This document shows positions 12,674 to 62,248 of a stretch of DNA of 64,000 nt, piece by piece. The position numbers and the translations under genes were made by a program. The notes under the pieces were generated by a model, which ran no database searches, was not told the DNA's origin, and saw only the letters and a program-made list of their open reading frames with translations. The stretch lies in NCBI RefSeq assembly GCF_002906575.1, contig NZ_CP026313.1:1-64000 (forward strand), in the 5' to 3' direction. Each line of letters begins with the position of its first letter. Within the stretch, counting starts at the first letter, position 1. This DNA comes from Salinigranum rubrum (GTDB lineage: Archaea > Halobacteriota > Halobacteria > Halobacteriales > Haloferacaceae).

Positions 12674-14020
12674 ATGGCTGACGGCGACGATCAACAATCC
12701 CTCTCACAATCTATCAAGGGCCGTCTTCAGGAGGGTGTTCAGAATTCTGTTTTTCGAGATAAAGGACTTCTCGACCCGGATGCCGTCATCGACGAGGATC
12801 GGATCGTCGGTCGTGATGACCAGCTGGACGACATCATCACCTACCTTCGACCGGCATTGCAGGGCAACCGCCCTCCTAACATGCTCCTCTACGGGCCGTC
12901 GGGGACCGGGAAATCGCTCATCATCAATGCGGTCTGTCAACAGGTTCTCGAACTCGCGAACTCTCAGGGAGACCGGTTCGGCGTTATCAAAATCAACTGC
13001 CAGACGATCAAATCGCACGACCGGGCAGTCTATCGCTTGGCGAAGAATGCAGCTGACGAAGCTGGTGTCGATGTCGGCATTCCTCAAAGTGGCATCTCGA
13101 CGGACCAGAAGCTCAATCGGTTCTACGAAATTCTGAGCAACAATTTCGACTCGGTCATTATAATCCTCGACGAGGTTGATCTTCTGGTGGGCCGGCAACG
13201 AGATCCGAACGACGAGCCAGCGTATTCGAAACTGCTCTACCAGCTGTCGCGAGCATCACAACTCGGTCGTATCGAAGGACACGTTTCCGTCGCTGCGCTC
13301 ACGAATGATCCCCGGTTCATGGAGGATCTCGACGGCCGAGCCGAGAGTTCGTTCAATCCACAGGATGTCGTTTTTCCGGACTACGATGCGAACCAACTAC
13401 AATCAATTCTCGAACGACGTCGTGACGCATATCAAGATGATGTCCTAGAGGACGGTATTATTCCGCTGAGTGCCGCGTTCGCCGCTCAGGACCACGGCGA
13501 TGCTCGAAAGGCTATTGATATGTTTAGGAAAGCTGGTGAGATCGCAGATCGAGCCGGTGAAGACACGATTCGTGAAGAGCACGTTCGTGACGCTCAAAAA
13601 GAAGCCGAACGCGACCGGACGTTAACTCAGATGCAGGGACTATCGACACAAAAGAAGCTCTCGCTATATGCCACCGCGATCGTCCCCGTTCACTCGAAGC
13701 GCAACCTGAACGCTGTTCCCAGCACCGTTGCATACCGCGTATATCAGTACCTTACTGACCTGCTCGATGCCGATGAGAAATCACGGGACTCCTACTTACG
13801 GTACATGAGTGAAGCCGAGACCTACAACTTCGTCACGTCGGCGAAACGAGGGCGTGGCTACGGGAGTGGCGTCCACAAAGAGTACACCTTCGTCGACGAC
13901 CCAGAAGTGGTCGCTGAAACGCTTCAAGCTGATATTCGACTCGAAGAGGTAGTACACGACGAAGATTTGATCCGGTCTGTTGTCAACGCACAGATAGAGG
14001 ACTTCTTCGAGGGCAACTAA
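12674..14020 (+). CDS. orc1: Orc1/Cdc6 replication initiator
   Basis: 448 residues. AAA+ ATPase with Walker A GPSGTGKS (about 75-82), Walker B IIILDEVDLL (about 161-170), sensor-like VAALTNDPRFMEDLDGR and a C-terminal winged helix (about 340-440). ORC/Cdc6 proteins bind origin recognition boxes and load the MCM helicase. The gene sits between two clusters of the same box, the usual haloarchaeal arrangement in which each orc gene is adjacent to its own origin. It is probably the replicon initiator. A TATA-like TATTTATTTATAG precedes it at about 12640, so transcripts start close to the ATG. Confidence 0.92.
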   Translation: MADGDDQQSLSQSIKGRLQEGVQNSVFRDKGLLDPDAVIDEDRIVGRDDQLDDIITYLRPALQGNRPPNMLLYGPSGTGKSLIINAVCQQVLELANSQGDRFGVIKINCQTIKSHDRAVYRLAKNAADEAGVDVGIPQSGISTDQKLNRFYEILSNNFDSVIIILDEVDLLVGRQRDPNDEPAYSKLLYQLSRASQLGRIEGHVSVAALTNDPRFMEDLDGRAESSFNPQDVVFPDYDANQLQSILERRRDAYQDDVLEDGIIPLSAAFAAQDHGDARKAIDMFRKAGEIADRAGEDTIREEHVRDAQKEAERDRTLTQMQGLSTQKKLSLYATAIVPVHSKRNLNAVPSTVAYRVYQYLTDLLDADEKSRDSYLRYMSEAETYNFVTSAKRGRGYGSGVHKEYTFVDDPEVVAETLQADIRLEEVVHDEDLIRSVVNAQIEDFFEGN

Positions 14021-38285: not shown

Positions 38286-39668
38286 ATGAGTGAATCTTTT
38301 GAACGTTCCCAACGCCTTGTAGGCTCGTCGAAGAGAGACCAGAGAAATGCTTTTCAACGCGATAGAGACCGAATTCTCTATACTCATGCGTTTAGGCGGC
38401 TTTCGGGTGTGACTCAAGTTGCTAGGGTTGGTGAGTCATACACATTTCATGACCGACTGAGCCACTCCCTAAAAGTAGCTCAAATCGGACGGCGTATCAC
38501 CGAGTATTTTCTCAATGAAACCGAAGGTCCTGATGTACCCTCTGGATTAGAGATTCATCCAGACGTTGTTGAAACATCTGCACTAGGACACGACTTGGGC
38601 CATCCCCCATTTGGACATGCGGCAGAAAAAACATTGAACAAAGTCATCACCGAAGACTTTGGTGTCCATGATGGGTTTGAGGGAAATGCACAGTCCTTTC
38701 GAACAGTGGCACGGCTTTCAGCTCATGATGAGGTAGAGGAAGGGCTAAATCTCACGATGGCCTCACTCAATGCCCTAATTAAGTACCCCTGGGAGCGCGG
38801 AGATGACCAATCTGAAAAAAACGAGTGGGGCGTAAACGAATACGATAAATGGGGCCATTACTCGACAGAGACGGATGTGTTTGAAAAAGCACGTACACTA
38901 TCTAGTCAGGAAAAACGTCCCTGTCCTGAAGCCTGTATAATGGACTGGGCAGATGATCTCGCCTACGCGGTTCATGATATGGAAGATTTCTATCGAGCGG
39001 GGATTATCCCGCTAGAACAACTGCTCGAACGCTCCGTTGAGAGGGATGAGTTCCTCGAATATATAGAAAACCATTCAGATATCACATGGGGTAGAGGCCG
39101 AGAGATATTGGATTGGTTGAGAAAAACGGGAGGAGAAACACTACTGACCCCCTACCGTGGAACAAGAAAAGAGCGCAAGCAGCTAGATTACTTTTCATCG
39201 ACATTGATAAACAGGTACGTCGGACGAGAGAAAGAGGGAGTCGCACTGCAGAACACCGCTGACGATGCACCATATTTGGATATTAACGAAAATATGAAAC
39301 AAGAGGTAGAGTTGCTGAAAAAGATGACATATTACTACGTTATAAGCAACCCGTCATTATCCTCACAACAACGTGGAGAGAAAAAGATAGTCGAGAAGTT
39401 GTTTAACATACTATATGGATGCACATTGCCCGATGATAGCGAAGCGCTTGATAAAGTAGAACAAGACTTGATGCCTGAAGATGTTGGAATGGTCCCTTAC
39501 AGATTCAAGCAAGAAGTTAGACATCAAAAAGAAGAAGGAACAAAACAAACGCGTGTTCGTACAGCAGCAGATATCATCTGCAGTATGACTGAGCAGCAAA
39601 CAATTTTGATGTACGAACGTCTTACAGGAAGCGCACCTGGGTCCATTCGAGACCAAATCGTGACCTGA
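38286..39668 (+). CDS. dGTP triphosphohydrolase-like HD protein
   Basis: 460 residues. YTHAFRRLSGVTQV and FHDRLSHSLKVAQIGRRI contain the first histidine; HDLGHPPFGH (102-111) is the HD pair; later MDWADDLAYAVHDMEDF supplies the last Asp. This order matches bacterial Dgt/SAMHD1-like dNTPases, which remove triphosphate from dGTP or other dNTPs. Several Dgt proteins limit phage by depleting dNTPs. The lower GC and A/T-ending codons compared with the neighbours suggest a recent arrival. The small HTH gene upstream may control it. Confidence 0.85.
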   Translation: MSESFERSQRLVGSSKRDQRNAFQRDRDRILYTHAFRRLSGVTQVARVGESYTFHDRLSHSLKVAQIGRRITEYFLNETEGPDVPSGLEIHPDVVETSALGHDLGHPPFGHAAEKTLNKVITEDFGVHDGFEGNAQSFRTVARLSAHDEVEEGLNLTMASLNALIKYPWERGDDQSEKNEWGVNEYDKWGHYSTETDVFEKARTLSSQEKRPCPEACIMDWADDLAYAVHDMEDFYRAGIIPLEQLLERSVERDEFLEYIENHSDITWGRGREILDWLRKTGGETLLTPYRGTRKERKQLDYFSSTLINRYVGREKEGVALQNTADDAPYLDINENMKQEVELLKKMTYYYVISNPSLSSQQRGEKKIVEKLFNILYGCTLPDDSEALDKVEQDLMPEDVGMVPYRFKQEVRHQKEEGTKQTRVRTAADIICSMTEQQTILMYERLTGSAPGSIRDQIVT

Positions 39669-44071: not shown

Positions 44072-45510
44072 TCAGCAGATGTACAGCAGCATCCAGAGTG
44101 GGAGTCGGAGGATGGAGTCGTCTGTTGTGTAGGGGTTGGTGATGTCCTCGCCGGCGACGATGCCTCGGGAGGCGTCGTCTGTTGAGTCGATGAATGCTGT
44201 TACAGCGGCGGCGGCGGCGTCTTCTCCGCGGCGTTGAGTGAGCCCAATGGGTAGGGGGTTGCCTTGGATGTCGAGGACGTATTCGACTGTGTGGCCGCTT
44301 TCGTCCCAGTACTGGACGGGCATGTCGATGTCTCTGTGATAGTTGAGGTTGAATGCGAGGCGGCGGAGGTGGTCGTAGACGACGGCTTCAGTGAGTTGGC
44401 GTCGAACGTCATCCGGTCTCGAGTCAGGATCGGTATCTGAGTAGGTGTTGAGGGCAATCACGAAGCGCGGGTCGATGAGGTACATGCGGAGCGAGCGGTG
44501 CCGTTCGTATCCCCATTTGTACGAGTGCGCGAGGATGAAGAAGTCCTCGAGGATGGCGAGGTATTTCCTGATAGTGCGGCGGTCGGTTTCGAGCAGTTCG
44601 GTCAGGTCGCTGAACTCGAACTCGCTTGTCGGGGTTTGCGCGACGAGTCCACAGAGCGTGTAGAGGTCGCCGGGGTCTTCGATCGAGTAGAATTCCAGGA
44701 CGTCGCGGAAGATCGTGAGTTGGAGTGCTTGCTTGATCGGGGCTTCTCCGCTCTCGTCTCGGAGTCCGCTTTCGAAGCGGTAGTTCTCGACGACCGACCT
44801 GGGGTGTGTGTCGGTTTCGGCGAGCTCGTTTTGGAGGGTCAAGCAACGGTCGACGACTGATGCGATATCGACGTCGTTGGAGCTGTCGAGCGAAGCGCGG
44901 ATCGGGTAGATGTAGTCGTCTTTATCGGGTTTGGGGACGCCGTGTTCGGCGTTGGCGTAGTCGATGAATTTCGGCGGGCGGAGGATCGAGTTCGTATGCT
45001 CGGTGTGCGATTCGAATCGGTCGAGGGTATCGTCTTTGACGGGGAGGGTGATCGCGAAGTGCGTGTCCGTAGTGTTCTTGAGGAGGGACTCGATCTGGTC
45101 TGCCCATCCGGCGATGTGGTGGGCGTCGTCGAGCAGGAAGTAGGTCGGTTGGTCGGTTTCGCTCGCGTTCCGCTTGATGTACGAGGAGTACCAGTCGTGG
45201 ACGTCGAGGATGAATCGGTCGTCATCGGTGCCGTAAAGGGGTTGTCGAGCGAGACGTACACGACGTTCGTGGGGGCCGCTTCTTCGTTGACGATGAGGTC
45301 GTGTATGATCTGGTAGAGCGTCGAGGTCTTTCCGGCGCCGTGCGCGCCTACGAGCGCGTAGAACCGTTCGTCCCGGACGAAGTCGTAGTGGTAATGGTAG
45401 TCGCTCCGGCGGGGTTTGCGGTAGGGCGTGTCGGCCGCGGTCGGGGGCTGGCTCGTTTCCCACCACGGGTTGTACAGCGGTAGGTCGCGCTGCAACCGTA
45501 CTGTCGACAT
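44072..45510 (-). pseudogene. DUF4143-type AAA+ ATPase, one frameshift
   Basis: The N-terminal 90 residues (from ATG 45510) contain FYALVGAHGAGKTSTLYQI (Walker A) and NVVYVSLDN. Near 45238-45241 one base seems missing from a C run (on the coding strand). The rest, from FILDVHDWYSSYIK, PTYFLLDDAHH (Walker B), through LTELLETDRRTIRKYLAILE (winged helix) to the C-terminal DUF4143-like nuclease-fold domain, stays open to 44072. With the base restored, the protein is about 480 residues. It is divergent from the Argonaute gene, only 110-310 bp away depending on start, and may be part of that locus or a neighbour. The break could be real or a base-calling error. Confidence 0.6.
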
Positions 45511-45621
45511 AGCGGTGCTAGTCAGTACGGCATCTTATGCTTTATGATGAGTCTATATTTTGTTCTTATATATTGACGTGACGCTATCTATTCAATAATA
45601 ATATTCTCTTGTTGCACTCTG
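45511..45621. promoter_or_regulatory. Divergent promoter region between ATPase and Argonaute
   Basis: AT-rich 110-bp spacer in a GC-rich neighbourhood. It contains TATATTTTGTTCTTATATAT (45552-45571) and further TATA-like AATAATAATATTC. A TATA-like box about 45 bp before the upstream ATG (45622) would serve the Argonaute operon, with the ATPase promoter on the other strand. Confidence 0.5.
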
Positions 45622-45822
45622 ATGCACCTAATCCGAACATTTATGCTCCCCGGTGCATTTGGTGCCGAGTATGCATCGTCACCAACCGACCTGGCTGGAC
45701 GCTCGGTTCCGGAGCACACAGCCCGCCTGGACACCGAGTCCGGCGAATCAAGCGGGCTGCGTGCCGATCCGGTTCGGCCGGTCTCGTGGCGTGGGGCGCG
45801 CACCCGCTCGAGGCAATCAGGC

Positions 45823-48437
45823 ATGAAGACGAAGACAGACATCGTCGACGGCGAACAGCTCACGATCACGCTCAAACTCACGGACGTCATCGAGATCGAC
45901 AAGGGCTCTCTCGCCCGGAAGGTCCTCTTCGAGGACGCCGACGGCGCGTCGGTCCCGCTCGTGGTATTCGAGAGCAACGACTGCGCGGCCTACGAGTGGG
46001 ACCGCGGCAGCTGGTACACGCTCACAGCAGCGAAGGGGAACTACTACGGCCCGTGGAACGAGCTCCAGCTGGTGCCGTCGTGGGACTTCGAAATCGAACG
46101 ACTCGACGAAGCCCCGGACGCGGCAAACGACACCGGCCCCCAGTGGAAATCGGCAGTGACGAAGGCACCGACGACGAGTTCGTGCCGGCGTCCTCGATGC
46201 GGAAGACCGAGCAGCCGACCGCCGACGGCGGCAACTCGCTCACCGGTCAGTTGCTCGCGCCTGGGAACTACCTCCTGCACTTCCCACTCGGTGACCTCTC
46301 AACGCTCGACGTCTACGCCTATGACCTCGACGTCCCTGGCGGGCTCGACCCCACGGACGACGACGTCCAGAACGGCGCGCTCGGGTTCACCGCCCGAGTC
46401 GCTGCGAACTACCGCTACCGCTCGGGCGCGCCCGTCACGGCGAACGGCCCGCTTAGCCTGTACGCCGTCGAAGAACTCACCGACGAGCTGTCGGTCGGCG
46501 ACTACACCGTGCGTCCCGAACGGCGGGACACCGAGACGCTCGCGGCGCAGTCGTTCGACGACCGCGAACCGCTCTGCGAACTCGTCAAGCAGGACATCAA
46601 GTCGGCGTTGAACGGGTCGTACGAGGTGAACGCGATCAACTCAATCGTCGAGCACTCGCCGCATTTTAGCGCGCCAAGCGGCGACTTCACTGCGTCGCGC
46701 GAGTACAAGTGCCGGGTCTGGGTCGACCCGGACGGTACCGTGCTGTGCGGCGTGGACGTCGGGTTCCACCTCGCCTCGACGTTCTCCGCCGCCGAATACG
46801 TCCGCCGGGGCTACGATATCGAAGGCGTCAGGGTCGAACACGACACCGAGGTCTACGCGAACTCCGCGACCGGGACCGTCGCCGAGCTCGCCGACACCGG
46901 CTACACCGACCGCGTCCCGGAGATGGGGTCGTCGATCGCGGCGTACCACCGCGACCACGGCTACGTCGATCCCGCAGTGATCGACAGCCTGACCGCCGGC
47001 GACCCTACCATGGCGCGCATCGACTACGGCTCGGCCACGGGGCTTCAGGTCCTCGAGCTCTGCCGCGTCGTCCCGTCGCTCGACCAGCTTAAACGCGTCG
47101 ACGCCGACTTCCACAGCCAGTTCCAGCGAAGGACTCGGCTCGCTCCGAAACAGCGGTTCTCGGCCGCATCGTCGTTCGTCGAATCGATCGGGACCACGCC
47201 GGCGCTCGGCCTCACCCTCGAGGCGCGCCCGGTGAACGACTGCTACTCCGAGCTCGCCGTCAACACCGGAACGAACAACCTGCGGTTCCGCGCCGACCGA
47301 ACCGCGTCGTACGGATTGCGCGGCCTGAACGACTACGGCGTCTACCAGCGCCCCGAGTCGTTCGACCTGCTCGCGGTCTACCCGGACCAGCAGGAAGAAG
47401 AGAGCCAGGAGTTCTTGCGACTCCTCATCACGACGCTGAACGATTACGGCGCGGACCCGACCAGGCTCGACCAGGAGGCGTACACGCTCGGGTCGGAGTT
47501 CGAGTACACGCACGTCGCGTCGGACGCCGCGGAGTACGACGGCGTCGTCGCCGTCGTTCCCGACCCCGACTGGCTGGCGCAGTACCCCGATATCGCCGAT
47601 CCGTACCCGGAGTTCAAGCGGCAGTGGGGGCAAGCGAAGGTCCCGTCGCAGATGGTGCTGGTGTCGAACCTCGACGAGGAGCGGTACCAGGCGAACATCG
47701 CGTCCGGTCTGGTCGCGAAGTGCGGCGGCATCCCGTGGCGTATCCACGACGTCCCGGGCGACACAGACGTCTTCATCGGGCTCGACGTCACGTACGACCT
47801 CGACACCGGCCTGCACCGTGGCGCGAGCGCGAACGTCGTGCTCGCCGACGGCACGATCCTCGCGTCACAGACCGTGTCGCAGCAGGCCGGCGAGACGTTC
47901 GAAGTCGACGACGTCGTCGACATCATCAAGACCCTCCTGAAGGTGTACGCCAGCGAGGAGAACCGCTCGCCGAACCACATCGTCATCCACCGCGACGGCC
48001 AGTTCTACCTCGACGTCGACGACCTCGTCGACCGGCTCGACAGGGGCGGCGACCTGATCCCGAAGGTCGACCTGGTCGAGATCCGCAAGAGCGGGAACCC
48101 CCGGATTGCGAACTACACCGGCGACGCGTTCGAGGTCGCGAACAAAGGTACGGGATTCGTCTCGAACCACACCGACCACGCCTACCTCGCCACCACGGGC
48201 AAGCCCGAACGCCTCCCGGGGACGCCACAGCCGATCCAGCTCATCAAGCGGCACGGCTCGACCGACCTACAGACGCTGACGCGGCAGGCGTACTGGTTGT
48301 CGGAGGCGCACGTCGGCTCGGTGAGCCGCTCGACGCGGCTCCCGATCACGACGTACTACGCGGATCTGTGCGCCGACCACGCCCGCAAGGGCTACCTGCT
48401 GAACGGCGAGCTCATCCGCGGGGTGCCGTACGTATGA
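45823..48437 (+). CDS. ago: NgAgo-like long Argonaute with N-terminal OB fold (frame broken at 46137)
   Basis: The N-terminal 95 residues (from ATG 45823; an alternative ATG at 45622 adds a poor-quality leader) are an RPA-like OB fold: LKLTDVIEIDKGSLARKVLF and DRGSWYTLTAAKGNYYGPWN. A C run at 46137-46141 then puts the rest one base out of frame. The core runs from 46142 to 48437, with a long open PAZ/MID part, then PIWI. PIWI tetrad candidates all remain: VFIGLDV (Asp 47784-47786), GETFEVDD (Glu 47892-47894), IHRDG (Asp 47994-47996) and TYYADLCADH (Asp 48363-48365). Joined, it is about 871 residues, close to 887 for NgAgo as I remember it. It would bind guide nucleic acids and cut matching DNA. 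ATG 46197 could start a separate core. Head of the operon. Confidence 0.8.
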
Positions 48438-48545
48438 CGACGCGACGCCAGCGCGCCGGCCCGTCGTGCGGCGGCGGATTCGGGTCGGGTCTCGTTTCGG
48501 TGCGAGGCGTTTTGCCGACCGGTACGCGAGGTGGACCGAACTAGT

Positions 48546-51500
48546 ATGGCGTCGGTCCCGCTCCGTCCGCCAGCCGAGATCCCGGACGACGTGGCGGCGA
48601 AGCCGTCGGTCGCGCCGTCGCGGCTCGGACGGTTCGTCAACCTCGACGGCTGCCCGCAGTGGTTCCAGTACGTGTTCGACGACAAGTACCGCAACGAACG
48701 GAGCGCGGAGCACGACTACGTGGAGGCATTCCGGCCGCTGAACATCCTGCTCGCGAAGGACGGCAACGACTTCGAGGACGACGTCGTCGACGCGCTCCGC
48801 GAGCACGCCAACGTCCGCGACCACGACGACATCGGGGAGTGGGCCGACTCCAGAGGAATGCTCCTGGATGCGTTCGACGCCGCGTTCGACGCCGGCGACG
48901 ACCGGACGCCCGTGGCCGTGACGCAGGCCCGACTCGGCAACCACCTCGAAGCCTGGCCGGTGACGGGCGACGCCGACGTCCTCGCGTGCTGGCGCCTCCC
49001 GCCCGACGATGACGACAACCAGACCGACCGCGTCGGGCTGCGGTTCCGCGTGCTCGACGTGAAGGCCGCGCACGAGGAGAAGACGTACCAGCAGATCCAG
49101 GTCGCGTGCTACACGCTCCTGCTCCGGCAGTTCCTCGAACACGTCGGCGTGGACTACCCGTACGTAATCGAGGGCGGCATCATCCTTCGGACCGACGAGT
49201 TCGACGACGCCGCCCCGGACACGCTGCCGTCGTTCGACCTCGAGCACCGCGAACTCGACGTCCGCCGACTCCTCGAAGCGGGCGGCCCGCTCGACAAGCT
49301 CTTCGGCGAGGCCCCGGGCGACGTGCGGTACCAGCTCGACGGGAAGTGCTTCGGGTGCGCGTACAAGGAAGCGTGCTTCACGGAGTCAATCGAGTCAGGG
49401 TCGACGGCGCTGCTCGGGCTGTCTCGGAACGACCAGGCCGTCCTCGCCGACCACGGCATCGACACGGTCGAGGACCTGGCGCGGCTCGCGTATCCGGAGC
49501 CGGACGCCGAGCCGTACGATTACGACGACCTCGAACCGGCGATGGCGCACCGCGAGACGTATCGTGCGTTGCTCGACGAGCCCGGGATCTCCGAGCGGCT
49601 CCAACGACACATCCAGGAGGCGCAGTCGTTCATGGGGCAGTTCGCGCCCGGGACGACGTTCGCTGCTGGCGGGACGAACCCGGTCTGGCTGTCAGGGAGC
49701 GGCAACGGCCACCTCCCCGAGGACGACCCGCCGTTCGAGATGGAGCTCCCGTTCGAGCGCGGCTCGATGATCCGTGTCTACCTGAATGTCCAGCGCGACC
49801 ACCGGTACGACCGCGTCAACGCCGTCGGCGGGTACGTCTCGGTCTCGAACGTCGACCACCCAGTGACGTTCGGCCACCTCGCCGCCGCGGTCCCGGACAC
49901 GGTCGCGGACGCCACTAACCTCGAAGCCGACGTCCTCGGCGACGCGCTCGGAAGCCTGTTCGACGCGATCGACGCACTCGGTGCCGCCATGGAGACAGAC
50001 GACGCGCCGGTGCATTTCTACCTCTACACGAACAGCGAGTACGAAGCGCTCGTCGAGGCGCTCACGCGGCACGGCGACGTCGACGGCGCGCCCGCGCTCC
50101 GCGACCTGCTCGGTCAGCGCGCCACCATCAGTGGCCGCGGCGACGACGCGTTCGACCACGACGAGCAAGCGATGGTGTCGATCGTGCAGCGCGAGCTCCG
50201 CGAACGACGCGCGCTCGGCGTCCCGACGGCGGGGCTGCTGCCCGCCCTCCGCGTCTGCGGCGGCGGCGAGGACGCACTCTACCGCCGCAACTGGACATAC
50301 ACCCGGTCGACCGGCGAAGAAATCGACTTGCAGCGCGCGTTCCGGTTCAAGCTGTTCGACCACCTGGTGAGGGCGCGACGCGACCCGCCAGGGCTCGCGA
50401 TGTACGCCGACGACGACCGCGACATGATGTATCCGTCGCGGCCACGCGACCGCGGCGAAGTCCCGCTCGAATACGTGTGGGCGGCGTACGATGTCCTGAC
50501 GCCTGACTGGGCGGAGGAAGTCCAGGAGGCGTCCGGGATAGTCCAGCCCGTCGACCCGTTCCGGTGGGTCGACGAAGACGAACAGGAGACGCGGATCGCG
50601 CCGGAGGACGTTGAGGCGCTCGTGGCGCGGTTCGCGCACGCGGTCGCCCACATCGAGCGGTCGATCACGCGGCGGAACTACCGCCTCCCGAAGCGACCGC
50701 TCCGACTCGGCGACCTCCGTGCGTTCACGCTCGGCGAGAGCCACACGGCGCGCGCAGCCGACGAGTTTCTCGCCCTCGAGTACCGCTCCGGTCGGCACGA
50801 CCAGCTCCGGACGTACGGCCTCCCGATGCGGCAACGCGTCCAGAACGGCGACGCGATCCCGATGGTGGTCACGGACGCCTGGGTCGACGAAGACGACGGC
50901 ACGCTCCACGTCGACGGCCACCTCCCGTACGACTCGGACCTGTTCGAGGACGGCGACAGGGTCGCTCGGGCGTGCCGGCTCAAAGGGACGTCGGGGTCGA
51001 CGATGGGGTCGTGGGTGGTCGCGAACCGACTCGACGGCAACGGCGACCCGCTCGACTCGACGGATCCGCGGAACATCGAGCACGGCCCGGCGCTCACGGT
51101 CGAGGAACTCGACATCGAGGCGCGGTCGATCCACCTGACCGCGTTCCCGGGCGGGAGCGGGCAGACCGAGTTCCAGACCTGGCACCGCGCCTGGACCGTC
51201 GACCCGAAGGAGGCGGCGGACACGAACGCGGTGCTGTTCGCCGAACGCGAGGTGTTCGTCCTCGACAAGCAGACCGACGACCTCGTCGCCCAGCGGTCGT
51301 ACAACCTGCTGCGCGAAGCACGGCACAACCCGCTCGCCGGACTGCTCGACGACCTCGCCGACGGCCGCGTAGTGTCCCCGACCACGGACACAGTCTCGGA
51401 AGCGGCACTCGCGGACTACGTCGACTGGGCAGTCCCGGACGGCGACGGCGGCGCGGAACGGTGGACGGCGGACCCGCCGCCGAATCAGGGGCAGCGCCGG

Positions 51501-53021
51501 TTCATCGGCGAGCACCGCGCCCGGTTGGCGCTCCTGCAGGGCCCGCCGGGGACGGGCAAGACGTCGGGTGCGCTCGCTCACGCGACGCTCGCCCGCGTCC
51601 GGTCGTTCGCGGCGGACGGCGCCGGCTGTACGGGCGTGGTGGCGGGCGAGTCGAACAAAGCCGTCGACGAGGTCCTCGAGGACGTCCACGACGCCTTGGT
51701 CGCGTACCGGAACCAGGGCGACGAAGCCCACGACACGGGGTGTGACGACCTCCTGGACGGCCTCGAGCTCGTGCGGCTGACATCCGACGTCCCAGAGGAC
51801 GACCTCGCGCACGTCACGTACCTCGACTACCACGAGCACGACGACGAACTCCGCCGCATCGTCGAACGGGTCCGGACCGAGACCGACGACCTCACGCTGG
51901 TGTTCGCGACGCCGGCGCGGCTCTACAAGCTCGTCGATTCGTTCTCCGCGGACACGTCGCCGGCGGAGTGGCTCGCGGGCGGCGCGTCGTTCTTCGACCT
52001 GCTCGCGGTCGACGAGGCGTCGATGATGCGGCTCCCGTCGTTCCTCACCGTCGGGGCGTACCTCCGCGACGACGCCCAGATCCTGGTGGCGGGCGATCAG
52101 CGGCAGATGTCGCCGGTTCGACAGCACGGCTGGGACGACGAGTACCGCCGCACCATCCAGGAACGCGTGCCGTACCTGTCGGCGCTCGACTACTGCCGGT
52201 TGCTCCGCGGCGACGACGTCGACGACGTCGGCGACGACCACTGCGTCGTCCGCGGGACCGCGGAGTTCCCGCTGTACCAGCTCGAGCGGAGCTACCGGTG
52301 TCACGAAGACGTCGCGGCGTTCCTCGCCGAACACGTCTACGCGCAGGACGGCATCCCGTACTACTCCGAGGAGGACGCGACCGTGCGGCAGCCCGCGGCC
52401 GTGAGTGACGGCGTCGCGCGTGTGCTTTGTGACCCCGACGTTCTCGACGCGTCGGGCGATGAGCCGCACGCGCTCACACTCATCATTCACGACGAAGCCG
52501 CGTCGCGGCAGTCGAACGCGGTCGAAGCCGCGATCGGGGCGTCCGTCGCCGAAGCATCGCACGCTGACGACGCGGTCGGGATCGTCACGCCGCACAACGC
52601 CCAACGCGGCCTCCTCGACACGTACCTCGACGACGTCGAATGCGACACGGTCGAGCGGTACCAGGGCGGCCAACGCCCGGTCATCTTGGTGTCGGCGACG
52701 GCGTCCGACCCGGACTTCGTCAAGGTCGAATCGGAGTTCCTCCTGAACCCGAACCGCCTGAACGTCGCGATGTCGCGGATGCAGCGCGGCCTGATCGTCG
52801 TCGCCTCCACACAGGTGTTCGACGTGATCCCGCCGCACGTCGAGGAGTACGAACGAGCCGGGCTTTGGAAAGGCCTGTTCGCCGACCTCGGCGTCCTCGA
52901 CCGCGACCCGGCGTGGGCCGGCACGCTCGACGAGTTCGTTGGACCGACCGACCTCGGCGGGCTCGACCCCGCACTCGACACCGACCTCGAAGTCTACACA
53001 CTCACCCAGGACCACCCATGA
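48546..53021 (+). CDS. RecB/Cas4-like nuclease fused to Dna2-like SF1 helicase
   Basis: 1491 residues from ATG 48546, with GAGGTG 13 bp upstream. The N-terminal 320 carry a RecB-family nuclease with an iron-sulphur cluster: C36 in DGCPQWF, the motif VLDVKAAHEEKTYQQIQVAC near 168, and GKCFGCAYKEACF near 266-276, as in Cas4, AddB and Dna2. A TM0106-like HhH-type linker follows (VLADHGIDTVEDLARLAYPE). The C-terminal 500 form an SF1B helicase: GPPGTGKTSG near 1000, FDLLAVDEAS near 1155, VAGDQRQMSPV near 1183, and TVERYQGGQRPVILVS plus NRLNVAMSR. It likely unwinds and degrades DNA ends. It follows Argonaute by 108 bp; Mre11 follows 127 bp later. Confidence 0.85.
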   Translation: MASVPLRPPAEIPDDVAAKPSVAPSRLGRFVNLDGCPQWFQYVFDDKYRNERSAEHDYVEAFRPLNILLAKDGNDFEDDVVDALREHANVRDHDDIGEWADSRGMLLDAFDAAFDAGDDRTPVAVTQARLGNHLEAWPVTGDADVLACWRLPPDDDDNQTDRVGLRFRVLDVKAAHEEKTYQQIQVACYTLLLRQFLEHVGVDYPYVIEGGIILRTDEFDDAAPDTLPSFDLEHRELDVRRLLEAGGPLDKLFGEAPGDVRYQLDGKCFGCAYKEACFTESIESGSTALLGLSRNDQAVLADHGIDTVEDLARLAYPEPDAEPYDYDDLEPAMAHRETYRALLDEPGISERLQRHIQEAQSFMGQFAPGTTFAAGGTNPVWLSGSGNGHLPEDDPPFEMELPFERGSMIRVYLNVQRDHRYDRVNAVGGYVSVSNVDHPVTFGHLAAAVPDTVADATNLEADVLGDALGSLFDAIDALGAAMETDDAPVHFYLYTNSEYEALVEALTRHGDVDGAPALRDLLGQRATISGRGDDAFDHDEQAMVSIVQRELRERRALGVPTAGLLPALRVCGGGEDALYRRNWTYTRSTGEEIDLQRAFRFKLFDHLVRARRDPPGLAMYADDDRDMMYPSRPRDRGEVPLEYVWAAYDVLTPDWAEEVQEASGIVQPVDPFRWVDEDEQETRIAPEDVEALVARFAHAVAHIERSITRRNYRLPKRPLRLGDLRAFTLGESHTARAADEFLALEYRSGRHDQLRTYGLPMRQRVQNGDAIPMVVTDAWVDEDDGTLHVDGHLPYDSDLFEDGDRVARACRLKGTSGSTMGSWVVANRLDGNGDPLDSTDPRNIEHGPALTVEELDIEARSIHLTAFPGGSGQTEFQTWHRAWTVDPKEAADTNAVLFAEREVFVLDKQTDDLVAQRSYNLLREARHNPLAGLLDDLADGRVVSPTTDTVSEAALADYVDWAVPDGDGGAERWTADPPPNQGQRRFIGEHRARLALLQGPPGTGKTSGALAHATLARVRSFAADGAGCTGVVAGESNKAVDEVLEDVHDALVAYRNQGDEAHDTGCDDLLDGLELVRLTSDVPEDDLAHVTYLDYHEHDDELRRIVERVRTETDDLTLVFATPARLYKLVDSFSADTSPAEWLAGGASFFDLLAVDEASMMRLPSFLTVGAYLRDDAQILVAGDQRQMSPVRQHGWDDEYRRTIQERVPYLSALDYCRLLRGDDVDDVGDDHCVVRGTAEFPLYQLERSYRCHEDVAAFLAEHVYAQDGIPYYSEEDATVRQPAAVSDGVARVLCDPDVLDASGDEPHALTLIIHDEAASRQSNAVEAAIGASVAEASHADDAVGIVTPHNAQRGLLDTYLDDVECDTVERYQGGQRPVILVSATASDPDFVKVESEFLLNPNRLNVAMSRMQRGLIVVASTQVFDVIPPHVEEYERAGLWKGLFADLGVLDRDPAWAGTLDEFVGPTDLGGLDPALDTDLEVYTLTQDHP

Positions 53022-53148
53022 ACTCCAACCACACTACCACGACACCGACGGACGCACAGCCAACCCGACCACACACCCGCGACGCCCCGACCTCGGTGGC
53101 GGTGCCGCCCGGTCGTTCCGGCCTAGAGGCGGGCGCGGAGGTGGTTCG

Positions 53149-54408
53149 ATGACGGTCGTGCTGCACACCTCGGACACCCATCTGGGCTACCAACAGTACC
53201 ACCTCGAGGAGCGCGCCGCGGACTTCGCGGCGGCGTTCGAGGCTGTGATCGACGAAGCGGTCGAGCGCGGAGTCGACGCGGTCGTCCACAGCGGCGACAT
53301 GTTCCACGACTCGAACCCGCGGATCGGGCCGCTGCTCCACGCGATCCGGCAGCTCCGCCGGCTCGCAGACGCCGATATCCCGTTCCTGATGGTGTCCGGG
53401 AACCACGACACGACGCGCGATGACGCCTGGGTCTCGGTATTCACCGAGGTCGCGGACGCGGTCCACCTCGGCCGCGACCCGACCGTGGTCGGCGACGTCG
53501 CGCTGTACGGCCTCGACTACCACACGCCGACGTACCGCGACCACCTGACGTACGAGTTCGAGTCGAACGACGCCGACCACGCCGCGCTCGTCGCGCACGG
53601 GTCGTTCTCGCCGCTGGTCGCGTACGGCGACTGGTCGATCGAGGACGTGTTGTCGTCGTCGACGGTCGCGTTCGACGCCGCGCTGCTCGGCGACGACCAC
53701 ACACCGATCTTCGAAGAGGTGGGTGGGACGTTCACGACGTACCCCGGTTCGACCGAGCGGACGATGGCGGACCAGCGCGACGACCGCGGGTTCACGCTCG
53801 TCAGGTTCGACGACGACGCCCGACCCGAGAGCGACCGCATCGACCGCGACGCGGTCTGCCCGCCCGGCGTCTCGTACGATCGGGTCCCGCTCGACACTCG
53901 GCCGCACGTCTACATCGACATCGAGGCTGAGGAAGACGACGCGGTGGCCGAACGCGTCCGTGACGAGCTCGGCGATCACGACGTCGCGGGCACCGTGGTC
54001 GCGGTCACGATCGACGGGGAGGGCGAGCCGGTCGCGGCCGGTCCGCTCGAAGCGTACGCGAAAGAGGACCTCGGCGCCCTCGAAGCGCGCGTGTCGGATC
54101 GGCGGCGCCGCGGGAGCGACCGCGTCGCGATAGACGTGTCGTTCGCCGACCCGGACGACGCCGTCGAACGCCGCCGACGCACGCTCGGACTGAGCGCTGT
54201 CGTCGACGAACTCGAGCAACAGGTCCGCGCCGACACCCCGGTCGACTCGAACCTCCGCGACCGTGTCGAGGAAGACGTCGAGGACCGCATCGAGGACGAC
54301 CCGGCGGCGTTCGACCCGGTCGAACCGGAGGTCACCGAAGAAGAGCTCAGAGAGCAAGCGGACGGCCTCGCCGTAGACGCGAGCCAACCCACCACCCAGG
54401 AGGACTAA
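53149..54408 (+). CDS. mre11: Mre11-like (SbcD-type) nuclease
   Basis: 419 residues from ATG 53149 (GGAGGTGG is 5 bp upstream). Calcineurin-like phosphoesterase motifs are complete: HTSDTHLGYQQ (about 6-16), VVHSGDMFHDSNP, MVSGNHDTTRDD, ALVAHGSFSPL and LLGDDHTPIF. Mre11 is the manganese-dependent exo/endonuclease of the MR complex, here directly followed by Rad50 (3-bp gap). The last 130 residues (EEDVEDRIEDDPAAFDPVEP) are acidic with a helical stretch suited to Rad50 binding. The normal haloarchaeal chromosomal mre11 is expected elsewhere; this copy is dedicated to the Argonaute block. Confidence 0.9.
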   Translation: MTVVLHTSDTHLGYQQYHLEERAADFAAAFEAVIDEAVERGVDAVVHSGDMFHDSNPRIGPLLHAIRQLRRLADADIPFLMVSGNHDTTRDDAWVSVFTEVADAVHLGRDPTVVGDVALYGLDYHTPTYRDHLTYEFESNDADHAALVAHGSFSPLVAYGDWSIEDVLSSSTVAFDAALLGDDHTPIFEEVGGTFTTYPGSTERTMADQRDDRGFTLVRFDDDARPESDRIDRDAVCPPGVSYDRVPLDTRPHVYIDIEAEEDDAVAERVRDELGDHDVAGTVVAVTIDGEGEPVAAGPLEAYAKEDLGALEARVSDRRRRGSDRVAIDVSFADPDDAVERRRRTLGLSAVVDELEQQVRADTPVDSNLRDRVEEDVEDRIEDDPAAFDPVEPEVTEEELREQADGLAVDASQPTTQED

Positions 54409-54411
54409 CCC

Positions 54412-57087
54412 ATGGAGTTCACACGCATCTCGCTCGAATCGTTCAAGTGCTTCGTCGACGAGACGATCGACCTGACCGGCGGCGTCACGGCGATGCACGG
54501 CGCGAACGGCGCGGGCAAGACCACCATCCTCGAAGCGTGCTTCTTCGCGCTGTACGGCGCCGACGTCCCCGACGTCAATCTCACCGACGTCATCGAGAAA
54601 GGGACGGACGAAGCCGTCGTCGAGCTGTGGTTCACGCACCTCGGCGAGGAGTACTACATCCGCCGCCGCGTCCGCGAGTATTCGTCGCAGACGACTCACG
54701 ACGTCGAACTCCGGACGCCGAAAGCAACGATCGAAGGACCCGGCGACGTCGCTGACGCAATCAAGTCGCTGTTCCGGCTCGACGCGAACGCGTTTCTGAA
54801 CTGCGCGTACGTCCGGCAGGGCGAGATCAACAAGCTGATCGGGGCGAGCGCGAGCGAGCGGCAGAACATGATCGACTCGCTGCTCCAGCTCGGCAAGCTC
54901 GACGACTACGAAGACCGGATGACGATCACGCGGAACGGCGTCCGGAGCATCAAGGACGCGAAGGCCGGGGAGCTGAAAAACGTCGAGGGAGACATCGCCG
55001 ACCTCGTGGAACGTGACCTCGAAAAGCAGCTCGGGCGTATCGTCGCCGAACTCGATGGGCTCAACGATGAGATCGACGAGATCGACGACGACATCGAAAC
55101 GGTCACTGAGGAGCAGCGCGACGCGACGAGCGAACTCGAAGAGATCGAAGAGCTGGAGGAACGGATCGACGACCTGGAGCAAGAGGTCGGTGAAGCAGAC
55201 GAAAAGGTCGGAGAGTTGAAGGACAGAAAGGAGGGCCTCGAATCCGATCGGGAAGCGGCAGCCGAGCGTCTCAACGAGCTCGAAACGGAGGCCGAACACA
55301 AGCTGGAGGACACCTCGGTCGAGGACCTCGACGGTGACGCCGTCGAAGAGCGCCTCGAGGACGTTATGGAGCGGCATGGTCGGATCGATTCAGCGCTTGT
55401 GGAAGCTCAAGAACAGGTGTCGCGCTTCGAGGAGGCTGTAGCAAACGCTCGGGACGAAGCGAGTGACCTCGACGACGAGGCTTCAGGCCTCGAAGCTGAT
55501 GCTGAGGGGCGTCGGGGCGAGGCTCGCGGACTCGAAGAGGACCTCGCTGACCCACGCTCCCGGCTCGACGAGGTCGAGGATGAGATGGACGAGATCGAAT
55601 CATCGTTCGACGAGAGCGCCACGAATCGCGACGAGGTGGAGGCGTTCGTCGAGTCGAAGAACGAACAACTCGAGGCAGCCGAAAGGCGGTATGGGGAGAT
55701 CCGCGATGAGCGAAGCGGTGTCAAAAAACGCATCGAGGACGCCGAAGAACTGCTGGAGGAGGGTCTGTGCCCCGAGTGCGGCCAAGAAGTTCACGGCGCT
55801 CCGTCTGTCTCGAACCTGGAGGACGACCGCAAAGCCCTCGAGGAGCTCGAAGACGACCTGAGCGAGGCGGAGGACACCGTTGAGGAGCGAGAGGAAGCGG
55901 TCCGTACGGCGCGCGACCTCGAACAGCAGGCGTCCCGGTACGAGGAACTCGAGGAACGTCGGGGCGACCTGAATCGCGAAATCGAGGCTAGCGAACAGCG
56001 GATCGAGTCAATCAGGAACGAAGTGGATGAGTTCGACGCCGAGGCCGCGGCGGTTCGCGAACGCGCTGGGTTCCACCGTGCGGCGATCCCGCATATCGAA
56101 GCGCGGAAGGAGCGGGACGACCGGGCGCAAGAGTACCTCAAGGACGAGGCTCACCAGTTGCACAGGGAGTGGCTCGCGCTCGAAGCCGCTGACGGGGCGC
56201 TCGGTGAGGCGGAACAGAAGCGCGACGAACACGAGCGACTCGGTGAACGACTCACTGACGACGTCGAACCACAGATTGAGTACTGGGAAGACGAACGAGA
56301 CGAGCTCGAAGGCGAACTTGATGACGCACGGGCTGAGCTGGACCCGAGCCGGGTCGACCGTCTCGAACGTCGTCGTGAGGGTGCTGCACGCTGGCGTGAC
56401 GTGCTGGAGCGACGGCGCGAACGCCTGGGTGACGATCGAACAGAATTGCAGTCCGAGAAAGGCGGGGTCGAGAACCAGCTCGAAGAACTCGGCCGGAAGC
56501 GCGAGCAACGAGACGCCCTCGAGACGCAAGTCGATCGGTTAGCGGCAGCCGTCCAGCAGTGCGACGACGTCGAGCAGATGTACCGCGAGCTCCGCGAGGA
56601 TTTGCGGACGCGGAATGTCGACGAGCTCGAACGGCTCCTCAACGAGCTGTTCGACCTGCTGTACCAGACGGATTCGTACGAGCACTTCGAGCTGTCGGAC
56701 TCGTACGAACTGACGGTGTACGAGAAGTCCGGCGAGGCGCTCGACCCCACCGACCTGTCGGGTGGCGAGCGCGCGCTCTTCAATCTCGCGCTGCGGTGCG
56801 CGATCTACCAGCTCCTCACCGAGGGGCTGAGCGGGCAGGCGCCGCTCCCGCCGCTCATCCTCGACGAACCGACGGTCTACCTCGACTCCCAGCACGTCAA
56901 CGAGTTAAAGTCGCTGATCTCGCGGATGGAGGAACTCGGCGTCGACCAGATCATCGTGGTGTCGCACGAGGACGGCCTGCTCAACCAGGTCGGCGAACGC
57001 GTCGAGATCCAGCAGGACAGCTCGACGAACCGCTCTCACGCCACCACCGAATCGCGCGACCTCCTCACCTCGGGGCTCGAAGAATGA
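54412..57087 (+). CDS. rad50: Rad50-like SMC-family ATPase
   Basis: 891 residues. N-terminal half ATPase with GANGAGKTT (about 31-39) and the Q-loop region ending VRQGEINKLIGA. Long coiled coils flank a zinc hook, CPECGQEVHG (about 452). The C-terminal half has the signature LSGGERALFNLALR (about 781) and Walker B LILDEPTVYLD (about 816). Rad50 dimers tether DNA ends and license Mre11. It starts 3 bp after mre11. The operon ends here: the next gene lies on the other strand and overlaps the last 52 bp of this one. Confidence 0.92.
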   Translation: MEFTRISLESFKCFVDETIDLTGGVTAMHGANGAGKTTILEACFFALYGADVPDVNLTDVIEKGTDEAVVELWFTHLGEEYYIRRRVREYSSQTTHDVELRTPKATIEGPGDVADAIKSLFRLDANAFLNCAYVRQGEINKLIGASASERQNMIDSLLQLGKLDDYEDRMTITRNGVRSIKDAKAGELKNVEGDIADLVERDLEKQLGRIVAELDGLNDEIDEIDDDIETVTEEQRDATSELEEIEELEERIDDLEQEVGEADEKVGELKDRKEGLESDREAAAERLNELETEAEHKLEDTSVEDLDGDAVEERLEDVMERHGRIDSALVEAQEQVSRFEEAVANARDEASDLDDEASGLEADAEGRRGEARGLEEDLADPRSRLDEVEDEMDEIESSFDESATNRDEVEAFVESKNEQLEAAERRYGEIRDERSGVKKRIEDAEELLEEGLCPECGQEVHGAPSVSNLEDDRKALEELEDDLSEAEDTVEEREEAVRTARDLEQQASRYEELEERRGDLNREIEASEQRIESIRNEVDEFDAEAAAVRERAGFHRAAIPHIEARKERDDRAQEYLKDEAHQLHREWLALEAADGALGEAEQKRDEHERLGERLTDDVEPQIEYWEDERDELEGELDDARAELDPSRVDRLERRREGAARWRDVLERRRERLGDDRTELQSEKGGVENQLEELGRKREQRDALETQVDRLAAAVQQCDDVEQMYRELREDLRTRNVDELERLLNELFDLLYQTDSYEHFELSDSYELTVYEKSGEALDPTDLSGGERALFNLALRCAIYQLLTEGLSGQAPLPPLILDEPTVYLDSQHVNELKSLISRMEELGVDQIIVVSHEDGLLNQVGERVEIQQDSSTNRSHATTESRDLLTSGLEE

Positions 57088-60985: not shown

Positions 60986-62248
<1,263 letters not shown>

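What the first reader, a model, noticed from the sequence alone, without database searches (positions are those of the whole stretch)
45511..57087. Argonaute-nuclease/helicase-Mre11-Rad50 operon: a candidate guide-directed defence module
Four co-directional, closely spaced genes encode an NgAgo-like Argonaute with OB fold, a 1491-residue RecB/Cas4-like nuclease joined to a Dna2-like helicase, Mre11 and Rad50. Spacing is about 108, 127 and 3 bp. Their very GC-rich composition and complete active-site motifs set the block apart from its flanks. By inference, Argonaute would nick or cut invading DNA with guides, and the helicase-nuclease plus MR complex would resect ends, destroy DNA or make new guides. 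Dedicated extra copies of Mre11 and Rad50 tied to an Argonaute are the unusual feature. I do not know of a described system with this exact set.
Basis: partly seen in the sequence, partly recalled or inferred. Interest (0 to 1): 0.95.

Follow-up and report, generated by a model that had tools for sequence, protein, structure and literature searches.

The report
Argonaute operon with dedicated break-processing enzymes
A plasmid of a salt-loving archaeon carries one gene cassette joining a DNA-guided cutting protein (Argonaute) to its own helicase-nuclease and to spare copies of the Mre11-Rad50 DNA-break machine; the same cassette sits on an unrelated plasmid of another genus, which suggests these parts work together, most likely to destroy invading DNA.

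Summary
44072-57087 carries a divergent ATPase, an NgAgo-type long-A Argonaute with an ssDNA-binding OB domain, a Cas4/RecB-like nuclease fused to a Dna2/Upf1-like helicase, Mre11 and Rad50. Spacings of 108, 127 and 3 bp are exact, and motifs are complete. One correction: in this assembly the Argonaute gene (45823-48437) is frame-broken between the OB domain and the rest, and the ATPase is frame-broken too. Both are intact in a relative. The Mre11/Rad50 copies are accessory; the genome has a separate chromosomal pair (48%/39% identical). The whole five-gene cassette recurs on a 138-kb plasmid of another haloarchaeal family (58-72% identity), with unrelated flanks, so it moves as a unit. Among 47 Argonaute-bearing haloarchaeal genomes, 12 of 20 accessory Rad50 loci lie within 20 kb of Argonaute; no housekeeping copy does. 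Three separate Mre11-Rad50 lineages were recruited, one inside a seven-gene operon. In the Argonaute tree the window's closest relatives carry instead PLD nuclease (AgaP), often with AddAB-like helicase-nuclease, so the accessory set looks swapped. Best reading: a guide-directed anti-DNA defence system with interchangeable end-processing machinery, a new variant of haloarchaeal pAgo systems (APAP is the closest described). Guides, co-transcription and activity are untested.

The parts
44072..45510 (-). Divergent AAA_14/DUF4143-type ATPase of the cassette; frame-broken at about 45229-45244 in this assembly
   Evidence: Pfam; two frames matched by the intact 479-aa relative of G238; the same family occurs in 23 loci of the haloarchaeal set, mostly beside Ago
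45511..45822 (.). Divergent intergenic region between ATPase and Argonaute; holds an archaeal TATA-like stretch (TTATATATT near 45568)
   Evidence: sequence; inference that it is the promoter region
45823..46131 (+). Argonaute N-terminal OB domain, first reading frame
   Evidence: 69% identical to G238 Ago residues 1-103; OB-fold model pLDDT 91 and Foldseek hits to archaeal OB/POT1/RPA/SSB
46140..48437 (+). Argonaute body (N-PAZ-MID-PIWI), second reading frame, in-frame ATG at 46197; DEDD tetrad present
   Evidence: 71% to G238; Piwi 1.8e-19; closest solved structure CbAgo 6qzk; tetrad in alignment
48546..53021 (+). RecB/Cas4-like nuclease (Fe-S cysteines C36, C268, C271, C277; E77, D144, D171-V-K173, QxxxY) fused to a Dna2/Upf1-like SF1 helicase (Walker A 999-1006, DEAS 1156)
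   Evidence: alignment of 12 homologs; PDDEXK_1 in 12 of 12; profile hits SMUBP-2/UPF1/DNA2; 70-72% to G238
53149..54408 (+). Accessory Mre11 (419 aa)
   Evidence: Mre11_Halo 2e-125; motifs DTH, GD, GNHD, H, GDDH; tree
54412..57087 (+). Accessory Rad50 (891 aa): Walker A, zinc hook CPEC, signature, Walker B
   Evidence: Rad50_Halo 1.4e-232; motifs; tree

Best explanation
It is a mobile, plasmid-borne pAgo defence cassette (ATPase | Ago - RecB/Dna2 helicase-nuclease - Mre11 - Rad50). The long-A Argonaute, loaded with short guides taken from multicopy or replicating foreign DNA, finds and nicks matching DNA; its OB domain would hold exposed single strands. Breaks and ends made by Argonaute or by replication are recognised by Mre11-Rad50. 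They are then unwound and degraded by the Dna2-like helicase with the Cas4/RecB-like nuclease, which destroys the invader and sheds short fragments that can be loaded as new guides. Mre11-Rad50 plus helicase-nuclease thus takes the place held by the PLD nuclease (AgaP) and an AddAB-like machine in the closest Argonaute relatives. Shown: gene content, catalytic motifs, cassette conservation, accessory status of Mre11/Rad50, recurrent linkage, and a partner swap on the Argonaute tree. Inferred: co-transcription, guide type, order of steps, target, and that the output is defence.
For: The five-gene cassette is conserved at 58-72% (ATPase 56%) on an unrelated plasmid of another family (G238 C4), flanks not shared, Ago and ATPase intact there. 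Purifying selection on Ago, RecB-Dna2, Mre11 and Rad50 since the split, dN/dS 0.10-0.19 with dS near saturation. Accessory Rad50 lies within 20 kb of Ago in 12 of 20 loci over 47 Ago genomes, against 0.2 expected under uniform placement; 7 of 15 after removing near-copies; no housekeeping copy is near Ago. Three separate Mre11-Rad50 lineages are linked to Ago: the RecB-Dna2 type, the NurA-HerA type (G083: Mre11-Rad50-NurA-HerA-AgaP-DUF2797-Ago co-directional, several genes overlapping by 4-8 bp), and an SbcDC-like pair after Ago-AgaP (G141). Window and G238 Agos branch with Agos that carry AgaP or AgaP plus AddAB-like genes (95/91 and 99/98 support). The AgaP relatives restrict plasmids and a virus (PMC11442185). 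pAgo guides in E. coli arise during RecBCD processing of breaks, CbAgo cleavage feeds RecBCD, and TtAgo co-precipitates with AddAB (PMC10269773, PMC10164581). The nearest solved structure to this Ago is CbAgo.
Against: Argonaute and ATPase are frame-broken in this very copy. The exact set is known from only two plasmids. None of the 10 closest haloarchaeal Ago hits in the plasmid collection (nor the divergent eleventh) has Mre11-Rad50 beside it in the annotated stretch. The RecB-Dna2 protein occurs in 40 of 391 genomes, mostly without Ago, and RecB-Dna2-Mre11-Rad50 occurs without adjacent Ago in G337. Under a harsh null that confines accessory genes to 200 kb of mobile DNA the linkage is only marginally significant (P about 0.02). 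No transcript, guide or phenotype data.
Confidence: 0.55

Rival explanations
1. Two independent defence modules side by side: Argonaute with its ATPase, and a stand-alone RecB-Dna2-Mre11-Rad50 DNA-destruction module. They travel together in plasmid defence islands without mechanistic coupling.
For: RecB-Dna2-Mre11-Rad50 without adjacent Ago in G337; RecB-Dna2 alone in many genomes; accessory Mre11-Rad50 on plasmids without Ago.
Against: The same order and the divergent ATPase are kept in two unrelated plasmid backbones; other Mre11-Rad50 lineages also join Ago, in one case in a tightly packed operon; the cassette replaces AgaP/AddAB-like partners on the Ago tree.
Confidence: 0.22
2. A plasmid-maintenance or recombination system: Argonaute helps finish replication or resolve catenated plasmids, and Mre11-Rad50 with the helicase processes the resulting ends, for the benefit of the plasmid.
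For: The cassette is on plasmids with Orc1/Cdc6 and primase-type genes nearby; TtAgo, SeAgo and LrAgo have decatenation or replication-completion roles (PMC10269773).
Against: Close haloarchaeal Agos restrict plasmid and virus DNA (PMC11442185); the family also occurs on chromosomes.
Confidence: 0.13
3. In this organism the locus is decaying: Argonaute and ATPase are real pseudogenes, and only the helicase-nuclease-Mre11-Rad50 part still works. (Compatible with any of the other readings for the family as a whole.)
For: Two frame breaks within about 1 kb; Ago genes are frame-broken in 6 of 47 loci against 2 of 162 partner genes (Fisher P 0.002).
Against: No further stops and low dN/dS downstream of the break; both breaks could be sequencing indels; an in-frame ATG at 46197 could still give an OB-less 746-aa Argonaute, a length like natural OB-less relatives of 747-752 aa.
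Confidence: 0.3

Closest known systems
APAP (haloarchaeal long-A pAgo + AgaP PLD nuclease; Cheng et al. 2024, PMC11442185)
   Same: Same Argonaute family with complete DEDX tetrad, same haloarchaeal plasmid setting, often the same divergent ATPase family
   Different: No PLD gene in the window; in its place RecB-Dna2, Mre11 and Rad50. The paper mentions only a helicase near some operons and never mentions Mre11 or Rad50
DdmDE (pAgo DdmE + helicase-nuclease DdmD), acting with DdmABC/Lamassu (Rad50/SMC-like)
   Same: Works-like parallel: pAgo plus helicase-nuclease, helped by a Rad50-like complex against plasmids (PMC10586767, PMC12904381)
   Different: Not shown to be homologous as a system: here the Ago is long and catalytically complete, the nuclease is Cas4/RecB-like, and a true Mre11-Rad50 pair is in the same cassette. 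DdmDE and DdmABC/Lamassu are described as two separate systems
CbAgo/TtAgo cooperation with RecBCD/AddAB
   Same: A pAgo and a double-strand-end helicase-nuclease act on the same DNA and on guide production (PMC10269773, PMC10164581)
   Different: There the repair enzyme is the host's own and not linked; here it is encoded beside Ago
Archaeal Mre11-Rad50-HerA-NurA end-resection operon
   Same: End-resection components; the accessory NurA-HerA form beside other haloarchaeal Agos
   Different: Window has no HerA/NurA but a RecB-Dna2 fusion; housekeeping haloarchaeal Mre11-Rad50 is elsewhere in the genome
Mokosh (MkoA/MkoC) and DpdJ helicases
   Same: Best PADLOC matches of the helicase part
   Different: Match limited to the SF1 helicase region; other parts of those systems absent

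Membership tests
Long-A prokaryotic Argonaute (NgAgo-type) | PIWI domain with DEDX catalytic tetrad | tested here: met
   GLDVT, GETF, HRDG, YYAD aligned with relatives
Long-A prokaryotic Argonaute (NgAgo-type) | Full-length N-PAZ-MID-PIWI body with N-terminal OB domain in one reading frame | tested here: not met
   Both parts present but in different frames in this assembly; one frame in G238
APAP | AgaP PLD-family gene beside ago | tested here: not met
   No AgaP-like protein in the window
APAP | Argonaute of the same haloarchaeal clade | tested here: met
   Nested with PLD-carrying Agos at 95/91 and 99/98
Mre11-Rad50 complex | Mre11 phosphodiesterase motifs; Rad50 ABC ATPase with zinc hook; adjacent genes | tested here: met
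Mre11-Rad50 complex | Housekeeping ortholog | tested here: not met
   Separate from the housekeeping copies, which group roughly by family; scores below equivalog cut-offs; chromosomal pair present
Dna2-like nuclease-helicase | Cas4/RecB-like nuclease with 4-Cys Fe-S site fused to SF1 helicase | tested here: met
   Invariant C36, C268, C271, C277, E77, D144, K173, Q185, Y189; DNA2/UPF1 profile hits
DdmDE | Short, inactive DdmE-type pAgo and DdmD helicase | tested here: not met
   Ago is long-A with tetrad; no Ddm-named model among the listed PADLOC hits
Lamassu | LmuB SMC-like with LmuA effector | tested here: not met
   Rad50 scores far higher to Rad50_Halo (774.7 bits) than to LmuB (128.7 bits); nuclease partner is Mre11 and no LmuA-type hit among the scanned cassette proteins
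Defence system | Protection against virus or plasmid | not testable with these tools
   needs a host assay

The most novel reading that the evidence does not exclude
Haloarchaeal Argonautes are front ends of a modular immune pathway whose second half is an exchangeable double-strand-end resection machine: AddAB-like, Mre11-Rad50-NurA-HerA, SbcDC-like, or, as here, Mre11-Rad50 with a RecB-Dna2 helicase-nuclease. This machine both makes guides and destroys the target, so Argonaute immunity and break resection form one dedicated pathway independent of the host's repair enzymes.
Probability: 0.4. Interest if true: 0.87.

Novelty: new variant of a known kind. Interest (0 to 1): 0.74.

Why it matters
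How pAgos obtain guides and destroy double-stranded DNA remains broadly unsettled, and studies lean on host RecBCD/AddAB. A mesophilic system that brings its own resection machine in one cassette would make guide production and target destruction testable gene by gene. It would also extend Mre11-Rad50, a universal repair complex, into prokaryotic guided immunity, parallel to the cooperation of DdmDE with Rad50-like Lamassu.

Tried and rejected
Structure prediction of the NurA-like protein gave pLDDT 31 and was discarded; identification rests on Pfam NurA in 3 of 5 members. Viral contigs: no relative of Rad50 or Argonaute found, and only four weak helicase-region matches for RecB-Dna2, so no sign of a virus-borne cassette. 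A programmed frameshift in Ago was considered because six loci are broken, and rejected: the break positions differ (about residues 105-120, 214, 261, 342). A PDB sequence search with the nuclease domain profile gave nothing significant. Whole-genome searches for window-type Rad50 across the class failed twice, so the frequency of accessory Mre11-Rad50 in Ago-less genomes is unmeasured. The dN/dS line for the ATPase is mis-framed and ignored. Bacterial-type promoter and terminator scans do not apply to archaea. Literature searches found no held paper that joins prokaryotic Argonaute with Mre11-Rad50 as one system; only open-licence papers were searched. The Ago tree has some long branches, so deep joins are not relied on.

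Full report
What is there. The window is the first 64 kb of a 129-kb contig (C5) in a 4.97-Mb haloarchaeal genome. A plasmid is likely: an Orc1/Cdc6 gene at 12674-14017, primase-type genes at 58.5-61 kb and a TFIIB gene at 36 kb. They encode an NgAgo-type Argonaute, a 1491-aa nuclease-helicase, Mre11 and Rad50. A divergent AAA/DUF4143 ATPase (44072-45510) precedes them.

Quality of the genes. Argonaute has the DEDD tetrad and is closest in sequence to CbAgo among solved structures. Its first 103 residues form an OB fold like POT1, RPA and SSB domains (model pLDDT 91; Foldseek E 1.6e-5 to an archaeal OB domain). The nuclease-helicase has the four cysteines, GxxxE/FE, D, DxK and QxxxY elements of Cas4/Dna2/AddB nucleases and all SF1 motifs, with the key residues invariant in 12 relatives. 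All 12 match PD-(D/E)XK, and the helicase part hits SMUBP-2, UPF1 and DNA2. Mre11 and Rad50 have full motif sets.

A correction. Argonaute is not one open frame here. The OB part (45823-46131) and the body (46140-48437) are in different frames, and the ATPase is broken near 45240. In the relative G238 both are single intact genes of 882 and 479 aa. The rest of the sequence still looks selected: dN/dS window versus G238 is 0.19 for Ago, 0.14 for RecB-Dna2, 0.10 for Mre11 and 0.17 for Rad50, though dS is near saturation. I cannot tell a sequencing error from a recent inactivation. Across 47 haloarchaeal loci Ago was frame-broken in 6 and partner genes in 2 of 162. An ATG at 46197 would give an OB-less Argonaute of 746 aa.

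Dedicated copies. The genome has exactly two Rad50 and two Mre11 matches, the cassette and one chromosomal pair at 39% and 48% identity. In trees the chromosomal pair groups with the same genus, while the cassette pair groups with G238 and, less firmly, with G337 and other accessory copies.

Conservation of the cassette. One search found Piwi in 47 of 391 haloarchaeal genomes. One, G238 (other family), has on a 138-kb contig the order ATPase | Ago - RecB-Dna2 - Mre11 - Rad50, running across the contig ends; joining the ends gives an intact 522-aa Mre11, so the contig is most likely circular. Identities are 72, 70-72, about 69 and 58 percent (ATPase 56 percent). Outside these five genes the neighbourhoods read are unrelated, apart from one regulator-like gene placed elsewhere. 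The unit of conservation is therefore the five-gene cassette, 44072-57087.

Wider pattern. Among the same 47 genomes I counted 20 accessory Rad50 loci, 12 within 20 kb of Ago; about 0.2 are expected under uniform placement (P about 4e-19; dereplicated 7 of 15, P about 1e-10). If accessory genes are confined to 200 kb of mobile DNA per genome the dereplicated P is 0.018. No housekeeping Rad50 is near Ago. The accessory copies fall in three lineages. Lineage I is the window type. Lineage II comes with NurA and HerA; in G083 the order Mre11-Rad50-NurA-HerA-AgaP-DUF2797-Ago is co-directional with several overlaps of 4-8 bp. G279 and G061 are similar without AgaP, and in G003, G065 and G269 the two halves are convergent. 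Haloferax volcanii has no HerA-NurA (PMC7776575), so these sets are extras. Lineage III is an SbcDC-like pair following Ago-AgaP in G141. About fourteen further loci carry Ago-AgaP with a UvrD-like protein, a PD-(D/E)XK nuclease and an AddA-like helicase. On the Ago tree the window and G238 sit with Agos that carry AgaP, alone or with the AddAB-like set (95/91), inside a larger clade that mostly carries AgaP plus AddAB-like genes (99/98). The simplest reading is a partner swap in which one end-processing machine replaced another.

Counter-evidence. The exact set is found twice. RecB-Dna2 is a free agent present in 40 of 391 genomes, often next to queuosine-type (Dpd-like) genes, mostly without Ago. 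RecB-Dna2-Mre11-Rad50 stands without adjacent Ago in G337. None of the Ago loci in the plasmid collection has Mre11-Rad50 in the annotated stretch. A looser defence-island explanation is not excluded.

Mechanism. Close haloarchaeal Agos with AgaP restrict plasmids and a virus (PMC11442185). Small DNA guides of SeAgo and LrAgo in E. coli are produced while RecBCD processes breaks, TtAgo co-precipitates with AddAB, and CbAgo cleavage feeds RecBCD, although RecBCD is not strictly required for guide biogenesis (PMC10269773, PMC10164581). The cassette supplies an end binder (Mre11-Rad50) and a helicase-nuclease next to Argonaute. The most likely function is guided attack followed by resection and degradation, with the fragments reused as guides. 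Co-transcription, guides, contacts and the defence output are inferred.

Known or new. APAP is the nearest described system, but the PLD gene is absent here and Mre11/Rad50 are not mentioned in that paper nor in the main text of the pAgo census (PMC6299218). DdmDE with DdmABC/Lamassu is a functional parallel (PMC10586767, PMC12904381). I rate it a new variant of a known kind.

Noticed in passing
L022, L046, L060, L112, L113 and window 46131-46197: Argonaute genes are frame-broken in 6 of 47 haloarchaeal loci, partner genes in 2 of 162 (Fisher P 0.002). Break positions differ, suggesting repeated inactivation of Ago rather than programmed frameshifting.
   Followed up: partly
L003, L023-L028, L030, L031, L033, L041, L110: Ago-AgaP is followed co-directionally by a UvrD-like 690-aa protein, a 300-aa PD-(D/E)XK nuclease and an AddA-like helicase-nuclease: an AddAB-like machine in the extended APAP operon.
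   Followed up: partly
L114:2167-15649: Operon Mre11-Rad50-NurA-HerA-AgaP-DUF2797-Ago with several overlapping genes, i.e. the NurA-HerA resection set joined to an Argonaute and its PLD nuclease.
   Followed up: partly
L011, L045-L048, L050, L112, L114: A DUF2797 protein is encoded directly upstream of one Argonaute clade, often overlapping its start; role unknown.
   Followed up: no
L146, L147, L154, L155, L156, L159, L160: Relatives of the RecB-Dna2 protein stand beside QueC/QueE-like genes, suggesting use with 7-deazaguanine DNA modification systems; assignment from sequence starts and memory, not from a family search.
   Followed up: no
L038, L039, L010, L006, L119, L018: DEAD helicase plus HHH-RNase_H_2 protein pair recurs near Argonaute and near accessory Mre11-Rad50.
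   Followed up: no
window 60989-62248: IS605 OrfB/TnpB-type gene (Cas12f1-like TNB domain) downstream of the cassette.
   Followed up: no
window 1679-3628 and 38286-39665: An AAA_23 SMC-like ATPase and an HD/HD_assoc phosphohydrolase on the same plasmid; other possible defence genes.
   Followed up: no
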